Below are positions 15,021 to 24,248 of a stretch of 64,000 nt of DNA, piece after piece (the stretch's first letter is position 1; every line of letters begins with the position of its first letter). Origin of the DNA: Wenjunlia tyrosinilytica (GTDB taxonomy: Bacteria > Actinomycetota > Actinomycetes > Streptomycetales > Streptomycetaceae); NCBI RefSeq assembly GCF_014646055.1, contig NZ_BMMS01000016.1:155464-219463 (forward strand), read 5' to 3'. A program made the position numbers and the translations under genes. The notes beneath the pieces are model-generated. The model was given only the letters and a program-made list of their open reading frames with translations, was not told the origin of the DNA and made no database searches.

Positions 15021-16052
15021 ATGTCCCAGGTCGAATCAGGCAGCCGACGGCGCCTCCAGTGGCGCGCGTGGCGCCGCCCGCTGCGCTCGCCGGCCGCGCG
15101 CTGGGCCGTGGTCGGACTGGTGCTCACGGGAATGCTCGCCTGGTGGCTCGTCCCCTCCGATGCCACCCCCTACCGCAAGGGCACGATCTCCCTCGCCACC
15201 GGCGTCTCCAAGGGCGTGTACGCCAAGTACGGCGACCTCCTCAAGCCGCGAGTGGAGCGGGATCTGCCCGGGGTGCACATGACGCTGCACCCCAGCGCGG
15301 GCTCCGTCGACAACGTCCAACGGGTCGCCCAGGGACGCGACACCTTCACCATCGCGGCGGCGGACGCTGTGGCCGACTACAGCGGGCCGGGGGCCGGGCG
15401 GCTGCGTGCCTGCGCCCGGCTGTACGACGACTACGTGCAGCTCGTGGTCCCCAACGACTCCCCGGTCAGCTCGCCGCAGGACCTCAAGGGGCTGCGCGTC
15501 GGGGTGGGCGCGCAGGGCTCCGGGGTGTACCTGCTGGCCAACCGCCTCCTGCACGCCGCGGGTCTCGGCCGCAAGGACTCGATCCGCCCGGTCAAGGCGG
15601 GGATCGACCGGGCGCCGCGGCTGCTGCGCGAGGGGAAGCTGGACGCCTTCTTCTGGTCCGGAGGGCTGCCGACGGCCGCGGTCAGCGACCTGGCCAAGGA
15701 GCTCCCGATCCGGCTGGTGCCGCTCGGCCCGCTGGCGAAGCACCTGCGCGAGGAGGAGACCGACGCCGCCATCTACTACCGGCAGGCGACCATGCCCGGT
15801 GACGCCTATCCGAACGCCTACCCCTACGGCAAGTCGGTCTCGACGATCGCCGTGTCCAACCTCCTCGTGACCACCGACCGCGTCCAGGCCTCGCTGGTCG
15901 AGCGGCTGACCCGCAGCGTGATCCACAGCCGGGACACCATCGGCCGCCAGGTGCACGCCGCCCAGCTCGTGGACGTGCGCACCGCCGTCTACACCGATCC
16001 GCTGCCGCTCCACGAGGGCGCCCGCCGCTACTACCGCTCGGTCAAGCCCTGA
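15021..16052 (+). CDS. TAXI-family solute-binding protein, membrane-anchored, orphan
   Basis: A 343-aa protein. ATG 15021 is preferred over ATG 15012 because AGGA at 15008-15011 is properly spaced only for the later one. An Arg-rich N-terminus and a single hydrophobic helix (about 28-46), without a lipobox, anchor it outside the membrane. The rest is a TAXI solute-binding domain: SLATGVSKGVYAKYG, PSAGSVDNVQRVAQG, DLKGLRVGVGAQGSG and DAFFWSGGLPT are the family's hallmarks. TAXI proteins normally feed TRAP transporters and characterised members often bind glutamate or glutamine, but no DctM/DctQ-type membrane gene is nearby. It is followed by the kinase with a GluB-like sensor, so a sensing role is inferred. 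Confidence 0.85.
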   Translation: MSQVESGSRRRLQWRAWRRPLRSPAARWAVVGLVLTGMLAWWLVPSDATPYRKGTISLATGVSKGVYAKYGDLLKPRVERDLPGVHMTLHPSAGSVDNVQRVAQGRDTFTIAAADAVADYSGPGAGRLRACARLYDDYVQLVVPNDSPVSSPQDLKGLRVGVGAQGSGVYLLANRLLHAAGLGRKDSIRPVKAGIDRAPRLLREGKLDAFFWSGGLPTAAVSDLAKELPIRLVPLGPLAKHLREEETDAAIYYRQATMPGDAYPNAYPYGKSVSTIAVSNLLVTTDRVQASLVERLTRSVIHSRDTIGRQVHAAQLVDVRTAVYTDPLPLHEGARRYYRSVKP

Positions 16053-16159
16053 GGTCACCTCAGGTCACATCCGAAGTCCCGCCACCCACCGCGGGGCTGC
16101 CGATAACGGACATTCCCATATGATTCAGCGCCGTTGGCGCGGGGGCACGGTGAGGTTAC

Positions 16160-16194
16160 GGATCAGTGCCGTCATGTTCAGACAGCACTGATCC
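16160..16194. promoter_or_regulatory. Inverted repeat upstream of the receptor kinase gene
   Basis: GGATCAGTGC (16160-16169) and GCACTGATCC (16185-16194) form a perfect 10-bp inverted repeat with a 15-base spacer, 41-75 bp before the kinase start. A TACAAT sequence at 16211-16216 could be a -10 box. The palindrome could be an operator or a leader hairpin. Confidence 0.45.
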
Positions 16195-16234
16195 CCCTAA
16201 CCTGAACCCCTACAATTCTTCAGGGGGCTTGCGC

Positions 16235-22584: not shown

Positions 22585-22625
22585 GGTGGTGCGGGCGGGG
22601 CAGTCCCCTCCCCGCCCGCACCACC
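22585..22625 (+). terminator. Hairpin between gluB and gluC
   Basis: A perfect 16-bp stem (22585-22600 with 22610-22625) with a 9-base loop lies in the 148-bp gluB-gluC gap. In binding-protein operons such hairpins partly terminate or stabilise the upstream message, giving more binding protein than permease; that role is inferred here. Confidence 0.7.
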
Positions 22626-22686
22626 CGGCCTCGCACGGCCCGCACCACCCGGACCTCGCCGCCACGCGCAACCTCGGAGACTTGAC

Positions 22687-23337
22687 TTGAACGTACTGCT
22701 GGACAACTTCGCGGCATTCCGCGAGGGGTTCTGGGGGACCGTCGAACTGACGGGACTCAGTACGCTGCTCGCCCTCGTGCTGGGCACGCTCATAGCAGCG
22801 TTCCGCGTCTCTCCGGTCCCCGCGCTGCGGATCTTCGGGGCCACCTGGGTGACCCTGCTGCGCAACACCCCGCTGGTGCTGCTCTTCCTCGTCGTCACCC
22901 TCGGACTTCCCGCGCTCGGCCTCAAGGGCTGGGACTCGTTCTGGCTCGCCGTCATGGCGCTGGGCTGCTACACCTCGGCGTTCATCTGCGAGGCCGTCCG
23001 CTCGGGCATCAACACGGTGCCGGTCGGCCAGGCCGAGGCGGCGCGCAGCGTCGGGATGACCTTCACCCAGACGCTGGGCAACGTCGTCCTCCCGCAGGCC
23101 GTGCGCACGGCCATCCCGCCCATCGGCAGCCTGATCATCGCGCTCGCCAAGAACTCGGCCATCGCCTCCGGGTTCAACGTGGTCGAGCTCGGCTCGGTGA
23201 TGAAGACCCTCAACTCGGCGGCGGGCTACAACATCTACGTGATCTTCTTCTGGATCGCGCTGTGCTACCTGATCATCACCTTCGCGGTCAGCGGCCTGTT
23301 CCGGCTGCTGGAGCACAAGCTGGCGGTGCCCCGATGA
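22687..23337 (+). CDS. gluC: Glutamate ABC transporter permease GluC
   Basis: A 216-aa integral membrane subunit of the HisM/HisMQ type with about five helices. The start appears to be TTG 22687 (MNVLLDNF), with GGAGA eight bases upstream; no nearby ATG or GTG fits the family start. The EAA loop that contacts GluA reads SVGMTFTQTLGNVVLPQAVRT. Its TGA overlaps the gluD ATG (ATGA), so GluC and GluD are made in step as the heterodimeric channel. Confidence 0.92.
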   Translation: MNVLLDNFAAFREGFWGTVELTGLSTLLALVLGTLIAAFRVSPVPALRIFGATWVTLLRNTPLVLLFLVVTLGLPALGLKGWDSFWLAVMALGCYTSAFICEAVRSGINTVPVGQAEAARSVGMTFTQTLGNVVLPQAVRTAIPPIGSLIIALAKNSAIASGFNVVELGSVMKTLNSAAGYNIYVIFFWIALCYLIITFAVSGLFRLLEHKLAVPR

Positions 23338-24248
23338 GTTCCAGCGTCCTGTACGACGTCCCAGGCCCCAGGACCCGGCTGCGCTTCCGCGTCTACGGCG
23401 TCGTCTCCGTCATCGGCATCGCCGCGCTGCTCGCCTTCGTGGTCTACAAGTTCAACGACACCGGCCAGTTCCAGGCCGGGCTGTGGGACGACTACGAGTA
23501 CTCCAACACCCAGCAGCGCATCGTCGACGGCCTCCTGACGACCTTGAAGACCTTCGCTCTGGCGGCGCTGTTCTCACTCGCCCTCGGAGCGGTCCTGGCC
23601 TCGGGGCGGCTGTCGGACCACCGGCCCGTACGGGTGGTCTCCTCGCTGGTCGTGGAGTTCTTCCGCGCCATGCCGCTGCTGATCATGATCTTCCTGCTGT
23701 ACTACGCGATCTTCACCACCAGCCCCATGTGGGCCGTGGTGATCGGGCTGACCCTCTACAACGGCTCGGTCCAGGCGGAGATCTTCAGGGCGGGCATCAA
23801 GGCCGTCTCCAAGGGCCAGAGCGAGGCCGGGTACGCGATCGGGCTGCGCAAGACGCAGCTCATGGTGCACGTCCTGATCCCGCAGGCCGTCCGCTCCATG
23901 CTGCCGTCGATCATCAGCCAGCTCGTGGTGACGCTCAAGGACACCTCGCTCGGCTTCATCATCCTCTTCCACGAACTGCTCTTCGTGGGCAAGTCGTTCG
24001 CCGAGCAGACCCCTCCGGTCGGCGGTGTCTACGCCTTCATCCCGATGGTGATCGTCTTCGGCTCGATCTACATCGTGATGTGCCTGACGCTCTCCTCGCT
24101 GGCCACCTGGATCGAGCGGCGCACCCGCCGCAGCAAGAAGGGCACCCCTCCCCCGCTCGACACCCCCGCGACCCTGATGGCCGACCCGGGGCACACCGTC
24201 GAGTTCGAGCCGCGCGACGGGCGGCCGGAAGACCCGAAGGCCCTCTGA
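23334..24248 (+). CDS. gluD: Glutamate ABC transporter permease GluD
   Basis: A 304-aa second permease subunit. The ATG overlaps the gluC stop. About five or six transmembrane helices, with the EAA loop GLRKTQLMVHVLIPQAVRSM near residue 180-200. It has a cytoplasmic N-terminal stretch and a C-terminal tail (about 265-304) rich in Arg, Pro and Asp beyond the usual end. It pairs with GluC. A GC-rich hairpin at 24268-24300 follows, ending the operon. Confidence 0.92.
   Translation: MSSSVLYDVPGPRTRLRFRVYGVVSVIGIAALLAFVVYKFNDTGQFQAGLWDDYEYSNTQQRIVDGLLTTLKTFALAALFSLALGAVLASGRLSDHRPVRVVSSLVVEFFRAMPLLIMIFLLYYAIFTTSPMWAVVIGLTLYNGSVQAEIFRAGIKAVSKGQSEAGYAIGLRKTQLMVHVLIPQAVRSMLPSIISQLVVTLKDTSLGFIILFHELLFVGKSFAEQTPPVGGVYAFIPMVIVFGSIYIVMCLTLSSLATWIERRTRRSKKGTPPPLDTPATLMADPGHTVEFEPRDGRPEDPKAL

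What the first reader, a model, noticed from the sequence alone, without database searches (positions are those of the whole stretch)
15021..24248. Possible multi-receptor glutamate-sensing island
The sequence shows, within 9.2 kb, an orphan TAXI-type binding protein, a receptor Ser/Thr kinase with a GluB-like extracellular domain, the GluR-GluK two-component pair and the GluABCD importer. TAXI and SBP_bac_3 families both commonly bind glutamate or related acids. Inference: the same ligand is read by two phosphorylation systems, one on Ser/Thr and one on His/Asp, beside its importer. I know of GluR-GluK as a glutamate sensor; I do not know of a described role for the neighbouring kinase and TAXI protein.
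Basis: partly seen in the sequence, partly recalled or inferred. Interest (0 to 1): 0.78.

Follow-up and report, generated by a model that had tools for sequence, protein, structure and literature searches.

The report
Three-part TAXI–GluK–GluR amino-acid sensor
In sampled actinobacteria 57 of 59 GluK-like sensor genes have a TAXI binding-protein gene close by, so the TAXI protein next to GluK–GluR in this genome is likely the overlooked outside-facing third part of a predicted glutamate sensor, beside a Ser/Thr kinase whose outer domain is predicted to read the same kind of amino acid.

Summary
The pattern of linkage is the finding. In 197 class genomes, 57 of 59 GluK-like hits have TAXI within 12 kb, always 3' of gluK, in two gene orders. 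In 14 of 18 same-strand loci read, a candidate TAXI start overlaps gluK's stop. TAXI–GluK–GluR stays together where gluABCD is gone or another transporter is the neighbour. TAXI is therefore most likely the third component of GluK–GluR. Its ligand is open: the glutamine that matters most in a known glutamate TAXI is alanine here. The kinase is a separate, patchier part (31 of 249 family genomes at the threshold used). Its ectodomain keeps the arginine typical of Asp/Glu binders (29 of 29 read). Kinase–SBP fusions are already known (StpK7), and PknG persists in 49 of 51 genomes checked. A conserved direct repeat (putative GluR box) lies before gluA, not before TAXI or the kinase. All signalling steps are inferred.

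The parts
15021..16052 (+). TAXI-type binding protein, 343 aa, likely membrane-anchored; proposed third component of GluK-GluR
   Evidence: NMT1_3 E 1e-43; TIGR02122 over cut-off; PDB 1us4 E 7e-22; beside gluK across the class
16235..18118 (+). Receptor Ser/Thr kinase, 627 aa: kinase domain, one TM helix, SBP_bac_3 ectodomain (alternative GTG start 16166)
   Evidence: Pfam; VAIKE, HRDVKPHN and DFG motifs; AlphaFold2 pLDDT 85.3, pTM 0.51
17345..18055 (+). GluB/GlnH-like ectodomain of the kinase (limits approximate); acidic-ligand arginine is residue 437 of the 627-aa protein
   Evidence: 5eyf E 5.5e-36, GlnH 6h1u E 7e-31; R437 invariant in the 54 kinases aligned; pocket counts
18197..19627 (-). 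gluK sensor histidine kinase
   Evidence: HAMP, HisKA, HATPase_c; orthologues; model pLDDT 70.8, pTM 0.43
19634..20332 (-). gluR OmpR-type response regulator (start approximate)
   Evidence: Response_reg and Trans_reg_C
20593..20627 (+). putative GluR box, tandem CTCA-N7-CTCA with 11-bp period, between gluR and gluA
   Evidence: phylogenetic footprint; the only match in the window
20739..21515 (+). gluA ABC ATPase
   Evidence: ABC_tran
21579..22538 (+). gluB SBP_bac_3 binding protein
   Evidence: SBP_bac_3; acidic-ligand pocket
22687..23337 (+). gluC permease
   Evidence: BPD_transp_1
23334..24248 (+). gluD permease (start inferred from the ORF at 23262)
   Evidence: BPD_transp_1

Best explanation
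A TAXI binding-protein gene lies beside gluK-gluR here and across the actinobacterial class sampled, and the TAXI protein is likely the ligand-presenting third component of this predicted glutamate-sensing two-component system, while a Ser/Thr kinase with a predicted Asp/Glu-binding ectodomain, seen at this locus only in the window's family, would be a separate receptor. Proposed mechanism. Membrane-tethered TAXI closes on a small acidic ligand outside the cell (inferred; ligand unknown). Closed or open TAXI docks on the outer domain of GluK and sets its kinase/phosphatase balance (inferred). GluR~P binds the CTCA-N7-CTCA repeat before gluA and adjusts the GluABCD importer (site shown by footprint, binding inferred). 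Independently, the kinase ectodomain binds Asp or Glu (pocket residues shown, binding inferred) and changes Ser/Thr phosphorylation of unknown cytoplasmic targets.
For: Linkage: 57 of 59 GluK-like hits in 197 class genomes have TAXI within 12 kb, 51 of them within 1.5 kb; TAXI is always 3' of gluK, 45 convergent and 12 same-strand. Of 80 named TAXI loci, 72 hold gluK and gluR and 2 more hold gluK at a contig edge; gluK occurs in 12 named families. On a tree of 141 TAXI proteins the 7 unlinked ones fall on one side of a single branch (SH-aLRT 96), and among linked ones orientation changed at least 3 times. In 14 of the 18 same-strand loci read, a candidate TAXI start overlaps the gluK stop by 4 nt. 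TAXI occurs in 247 of 249 family genomes, GluB (E 1e-60) in 157 of 249. TAXI-gluK-gluR survives without gluABCD (L095, L098, L112, L113), and elsewhere lies beside other transporters: an MHS-type symporter, MFS, TRAP DctM, an amino-acid permease. TAXI pocket positions are fixed across families: Tyr45 in 60 of 61, Tyr at 123 in 61 of 61, Trp at 200 in 58 of 61 (VcGluP numbering, matched by me from alignments). The own genome holds a second gluR'-gluK'-TAXI' set. Kinase pocket: the GlnH Arg147 equivalent is Arg in 29 of 29 kinase ectodomains and 39 of 39 GluB; it is not Arg in AncQR or AncCDT-1. GluR box: present upstream in 33 of 33 family loci with a gluA hit of 65% identity or more, absent in the 4 read without gluABCD.
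Against: A review reports that GluK itself binds glutamate in biolayer interferometry (PMC9739842, passages), so TAXI may not be needed. No TAXI-HK fusion was found among 7995 candidates scored. No GluR box lies before TAXI in 41 of 41 family loci or before the kinase in 22 of 22. VcGluP's decisive Gln93 is Ala here. One GluK homologue lies in mid-contig without TAXI (G622), and 21 of 78 TAXI hits in the class sample have no GluK hit nearby. Of 20 ORFs scanned on the gluR side of modules without gluABCD, 15 are not permeases. No interaction, binding or phosphorylation was measured. The relatives are not independent samples.
Confidence: 0.66

Rival explanations
1. TAXI is an uptake binding protein that hands ligand to a permease encoded elsewhere; it sits beside gluK only because both concern amino-acid use.
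For: TIGR02122 TRAP_TAXI over cut-off. In some loci a DctM permease and a second TAXI lie beside the module (L131, L170). TAXI-GltS shows that TAXIs can adopt other permeases (PMC12344293, abstract and passages).
Against: No DctM among the 20 ORFs scanned around the window TAXI. The overlap is with gluK, not with a permease. Linkage survives exchange of the transporter. Where a TRAP permease and its downstream gene were both readable (L131, L170), the permease has its own second TAXI.
Confidence: 0.2
2. One reading: TAXI, the kinase and GluK all read glutamate, so one ligand feeds a His/Asp and a Ser/Thr system beside its importer.
For: Kinase ectodomain and GluB share the acidic-ligand arginine. 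GluK is reported to bind glutamate (review passages). The importer is adjacent.
Against: TAXI lacks VcGluP's key Gln93. The kinase is in 31 of 249 genomes and can be unlinked. No shared GluR box.
Confidence: 0.3
3. The kinase is a one-protein substitute for GlnH-GlnX-PknG.
For: Its ectodomain resembles GlnH; GlnH is proposed to regulate PknG (PMC6069109, abstract and passages). The only two genomes of 51 without a PknG_rubred match, G305 and G306, both carry the kinase.
Against: PknG_rubred is present in 20 of 22 genomes with the kinase at this locus, 10 of 10 with it elsewhere and 19 of 19 without it. The SBP near PknG in this genome, a single long-branched row, does not group with the kinase ectodomains.
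Confidence: 0.05

Closest known systems
GluR-GluK two-component system of Streptomyces coelicolor (SCO5778/SCO5779)
   Same: HK-RR next to gluABCD, as described in the review PMC9739842 (passages).
   Different: The review passages seen name no TAXI partner and no receptor Ser/Thr kinase. The original paper (Li 2017) was not held, so whether it mentions the neighbour is unknown.
Binding-protein-triggered sensor kinases (BctC-BctE; XylFII-LytS; TorT-TorS)
   Same: A binding protein acts on a sensor kinase; for BctC-BctE this controls a transporter (PMC9602780 and PMC5812351, passages; the name TorT is recalled).
   Different: A TAXI (NMT1_3) protein and a GluK-type HK; docking untested here.
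TAXI proteins of glutamate transporters (VcGluP, TtGluBP, BP0403)
   Same: Same fold family; Tyr45 kept.
   Different: Gln93 replaced by Ala; no adjacent TRAP carrier found; linked to an HK instead.
SBP receptor kinases such as StpK7 (MSMEG_1200); GlnH-GlnX-PknG
   Same: Kinase plus SBP_bac_3 in one chain (NF052427 aligned over residues 30-596); GlnH-like pocket.
   Different: 185.5 bits against the StpK7 cut-off of 900; no PknG domains; sits between TAXI and gluK.

Membership tests
SBP-dependent three-component sensor | SBP gene consistently linked to one HK-RR pair | tested here: met
   57 of 59 GluK-like hits; 72 of 80 named loci with both
SBP-dependent three-component sensor | SBP exported and tethered | tested here: inconclusive
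   By eye only, 15 N-termini printed: hydrophobic stretch in family rows, lipobox-like cysteine in L120, L125, L128, L131; no signal-peptide program run
SBP-dependent three-component sensor | SBP binds the HK ectodomain and alters its activity | not testable with these tools
   Needs binding and genetics; no fusion seen
GluR-GluK | OmpR-type RR and HAMP-HisKA HK divergent from gluABCD | tested here: met
GluR-GluK | HK binds glutamate | not testable with these tools
   Reported for GluK in PMC9739842; not measured for this protein
TAXI-TRAP transporter | TAXI SBP model match | tested here: met
   TIGR02122 237.7 bits, cut-off 84.35
TAXI-TRAP transporter | Adjacent fused DctQM permease | tested here: not met
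   No DctM match among 20 ORFs scanned at 10716-29102
Glutamate-binding TAXI (VcGluP type) | Tyr45 and Gln93 pocket residues | tested here: not met
   Tyr kept, Gln93 is Ala in the window; A/T/Q in 19/18/4 of 41 family loci
Asp/Glu-specific SBP_bac_3 (GlnH pocket) | Arg147, Thr162, Trp232 equivalents contact the acidic side chain | tested here: inconclusive
   Kinase: Arg 29/29, Ser 27 or Thr 2, Tyr 28/29; GluB: Arg 39/39, Thr 39/39, Tyr 39/39
StpK7 equivalog | NF052427 above cut-off | tested here: not met
   185.5 bits against 900
PknG | Rubredoxin-like and TPR domains on the kinase | tested here: not met
   Not among the Pfam matches of the kinase

The most novel reading that the evidence does not exclude
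TAXI-GluK-GluR is a widespread actinobacterial three-component sensor family in which TAXI was split into transport and sensing paralogues and plugged into interchangeable importers. In Streptomycetaceae it was joined by a receptor Ser/Thr kinase, so that one extracellular amino-acid pool is read at once by a His/Asp and a Ser/Thr phosphorylation system beside its importer.
Probability: 0.35. Interest if true: 0.76.

Novelty: new variant of a known kind. Interest (0 to 1): 0.6.

Why it matters
A 2016 survey found one TAXI gene in each of 31 Streptomyces strains and could only say that it is important (PMC4921485, one passage); that it is the gene described here is my inference. The linkage gives it a role that one deletion can test. 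GluK is one of few streptomycete sensors with a reported ligand (PMC9739842); if that ligand is presented by TAXI, work on glutamate control of uptake and antibiotic production should include TAXI. The stimuli of bacterial Ser/Thr kinases are called an outstanding question in PMC6069109 (abstract); this receptor kinase comes with a predicted ligand.

Tried and rejected
Kinase ectodomain as a copy of the neighbouring gluB: 102 of 254 aligned residues identical, and the two window domains fall in different groups of the SBP tree, in which kinase ectodomains are not all one group; rejected for this kinase. Kinase as a PknG replacement: PknG_rubred in 49 of 51 genomes, the two misses (G305, G306) both kinase-bearing; disfavoured. 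TAXI-HK fusion: one hit, 463 aa with the TAXI domain only; none found. Shared GluR box before TAXI or the kinase: none in family loci; three outside loci (L114, L115, L129) have a CTCA-N7-CTCA before TAXI where about 1.2 would be expected by my arithmetic, not used. GluR regulon in the own genome: one exact site; 6 matches in all against 3 for the reversed control. RNA families: no match in 10000-28000 at gathering score. Fold search of GluK: the 50 best rows are histidine-kinase or phytochrome/LOV-kinase structures and say nothing certain about the outer domain. The kinase leader hairpin (z -4.5) was not followed. Kinase history: at least 6 changes on the concatenated tree; presence in the first-branching lineages suggests an early gain and later losses, but such counts cannot tell gain from loss.
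Full report
WHAT IS THERE. The window carries, in order, miaA and miaB (-), TAXI (15021-16052 +), a receptor Ser/Thr kinase (16235-18118 +), gluK (18197-19627 -), gluR (19634 to about 20332 -), gluABCD (20739-24248 +), an FAD_binding_3 gene and rny. The TAXI ORF begins at an ATG at 15021. The kinase most likely begins at the ATG at 16235; 16166 is a GTG alternative. The family is taken to be Streptomycetaceae from the names of the closest GluK homologues; the genomes in the family, class and phylum samples are unnamed.

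TAXI FOLLOWS GLUK, NOT THE IMPORTER. Within the family TAXI is found in 247 of 249 genomes (17 of 17 genera, E 1e-40; the misses G316 and G424 are in hundreds of contigs), GluB in 157 of 249 (E 1e-60) and the full kinase in 31 of 249 (E 1e-95, 7 of 17 genera). The last figure is a lower bound: G297 carries the kinase too but fell below that threshold (L103). I read 50 neighbourhoods from the family: 30 chosen for the kinase and 20 chosen for TAXI or GluB. In all 20 of the second set TAXI is followed by gluK and gluR, with the kinase between in L103 and inserts of several kb in L100 and L101. In L095, L098, L112 and L113 no gluABCD hit is seen but TAXI-gluK-gluR remains. Outside the family, 19 of 20 loci chosen for their TAXI match have gluK and gluR hits beside it (not L127; L133 weak at 31% identity for gluK).

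RECIPROCAL TEST. I searched 197 class genomes for TAXI (E 1e-20) and separately for GluK (E 1e-50); at most 11 and 8 candidates per genome were scored. Of 59 GluK hits, 57 have a TAXI hit within 12 kb and 51 within 1.5 kb. The two exceptions are G660, whose contig ends 2.9 kb after gluK, and G622, a real exception. TAXI is always on the 3' side of gluK: 45 convergent, 12 same-strand. 44 genomes have both, 2 GluK only, 11 TAXI only; Fisher p is 6e-31, but related genomes are not independent. 21 of 78 TAXI hits have no GluK hit nearby, so TAXI as a whole is broader than this module.

NAMED LOCI. 72 of 80 hold gluK and gluR, 2 hold gluK at a contig edge, 6 hold neither (L163, L164, L171, L174, L201, L208). 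Loci with gluK by family: Micromonosporaceae 23 of 24, Microbacteriaceae 20 of 20, Pseudonocardiaceae 12 of 12, Streptomycetaceae 6 of 6, Thermomonosporaceae 2 of 3, Streptosporangiaceae 0 of 3, seven smaller families 10 of 10, unassigned 1 of 2. In 19 of 20 Microbacteriaceae loci the order is gluR-gluK-TAXI-gluABCD on one strand; the stretch of the twentieth, L141, ends before gluA would come. On a tree of 141 TAXI proteins (98 convergent, 36 same-strand, 7 unlinked) the 7 unlinked ones form one side of one branch (SH-aLRT 96), and among linked ones orientation changed at least 3 times (quick tree, some long branches). I read the gluK-TAXI junction in 18 of the 36 same-strand loci: in 14 a candidate TAXI start codon overlaps gluK's stop by 4 nt; the others are L118, L119, L155 and L161, and in L155 the gluK end was not placed correctly.

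PLUG-IN TRANSPORTERS. The own genome has a second gluR'-gluK'-TAXI' set; an MHS-type symporter gene (TIGR00883 406 bits, NF007710 476 bits, both below cut-off) ends 25 nt before the gluR' ORF. Genome G350 has the same gene order with a 104-nt gap. For modules without gluABCD I scanned 20 ORFs on the gluR side: 5 are transporters (DctM TRAP permeases divergent from gluR in L131, L170 and L177, MFS in L117, amino-acid permease in L159), 1 is another binding protein (L214), 14 are neither (for example PF04464 proteins, M14 peptidases, glycerophosphate-oxidase-like proteins). L131 and L170 hold a second TAXI after the permease.

TAXI LIGAND. Binding residues come from passages of PMC11574862: in VcGluP, Tyr45 and Gln93 matter most. 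I assigned equivalent columns from the alignments. In 41 family and 20 outside TAXIs, Tyr45 is Tyr in 41 and 19; Gln93 is A/Q/T in 19/4/18 and A/Q/L/T in 9/6/4/1; His123 is Tyr in 41 and 20; Glu125 is Asp in 41 and 12; Tyr200 is Trp in 41 and 17. The pocket is conserved but differs from VcGluP, so a single related ligand is likely (inference), and glutamate is neither shown nor excluded.

KINASE. The ectodomain's best solved relatives are a glutamate ABC binding protein (5eyf, 5.5e-36) and M. tuberculosis GlnH (7e-31). GlnH contacts come from passages of PMC6069109. In 29 kinase ectodomains and 39 GluB proteins the Arg147 equivalent is Arg in all, Arg169 and Asp250 in all; Trp232 is Tyr in 28 and 39; Thr162 is Ser 27 or Thr 2 in kinases and Thr in 39 GluB; Ser164 is S/T/L 23/5/1 and T/S 28/11. 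The kinase set is the 29 of 50 ectodomain hits lying in an ORF with HRD and DFG (the dropped 21 include the kinase loci L090 and L092, whose best ectodomain hit was in another ORF); the GluB set is the 39 of 50 hits outside such ORFs. R437 is invariant in the 54 kinases I aligned out of the 120 listed hits. Catalytic motifs are intact in the window protein. Of 30 kinase loci fetched, 20 have the kinase between TAXI and gluK (with inserts of about 4 to 7 kb in L067, L068 and L073), 9 have no TAXI or gluABCD within about 10 kb (L087 has weak HK and RR hits), and 1 is on a 3.4-kb contig; with the window and L103, 22 are syntenic. In 296 phylum genomes no full-length match was seen outside the family at E 1e-50, though only 4 candidates per genome were scored; the architecture does occur outside, for example in an Amycolatopsis lurida protein (P0071). 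The kinase type itself is known: StpK7 aligns along most of its length at 185.5 bits, below its cut-off of 900; PMC6069109 notes MSMEG_1200 and further SBP kinases; NCBI already names orthologues 'bifunctional serine/threonine-protein kinase/glutamate ABC transporter substrate-binding' proteins.

GLUR BOX. Aligning gluR-gluA spacers gave TCGTnATGCTCAAnTTCnGCTCAGATGTnnTGACG; 27 of 35 spacers gave strong sites. CTCA-N7-CTCA is present upstream of gluR in 33 of 33 family loci with a gluA hit of at least 65% identity and in two with a weaker gluA hit (L100, L101), and absent in the 4 family loci without gluABCD; L067 and L068 end near this region and are not counted. Outside the family it is present in 2 of 8 loci with gluA (L114, L115). 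Background over all loci is 0.055 per kb. It is absent before TAXI in 41 of 41 and before the kinase in 22 of 22 family loci. Activation or repression is not known, and GluR binding was not tested.

LITERATURE. Full-text searches for TAXI with histidine kinase, two-component and Streptomyces, and for TAXI with sensor histidine kinase and solute-binding protein, returned nothing; TAXI with two-component and TRAP gave 11 papers, of which I read passages of two, PMC5812351 (12 of 18 places shown) and PMC4921485, without seeing a TAXI-HK pairing. Passages of PMC12344293 and PMC9602780 showed none either. Subscription papers, including Li 2017, are not held. PMC4921485 reports one TAXI gene per strain in 31 Streptomyces strains.

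VERDICT. The best reading is a three-component TAXI-GluK-GluR sensor with exchangeable importers, plus a patchily kept SBP kinase at the same locus in one family. Linkage is shown; every signalling step is inferred.

Noticed in passing
L222 (G000:C35) 6702-11300: Second gluR'-gluK'-TAXI' set in the same genome with an MHS-type symporter gene ending 25 nt before the gluR' ORF; same gene order in L224 with a 104-nt gap.
   Followed up: partly
L131, L170, L177: A DctM TRAP permease gene is divergent from gluR of the module; L131 and L170 also hold a second TAXI, as if transport and sensing TAXIs had split.
   Followed up: partly
window 16150-16245: Kinase leader folds far better than shuffles (z -4.5) with a stem near the likely ribosome site; leaders of other loci look different in sequence.
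   Followed up: no
L079, L080, L081, L092 upstream of the kinase: A shared CCTAATCTCTACGCATG stretch suggests a -10-like box just before the ATG, possibly a leaderless transcript.
   Followed up: no
L110, L111: The gluB, gluC and gluD positions hold a divergent set (43-46% identity) while gluA and gluKR stay close to the window's.
   Followed up: no
L227 (G000:C14) about 9400-10300: A second GluB-like protein (61-62% identity) with no gluA, gluC or gluD hit within the fetched 20 kb.
   Followed up: no
L092 (G401): The kinase gene is split over two frames in this assembly; described only.
   Followed up: no
L114, L115, L129: A CTCA-N7-CTCA repeat lies before TAXI in these three loci outside the family; the number is near chance.
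   Followed up: partly
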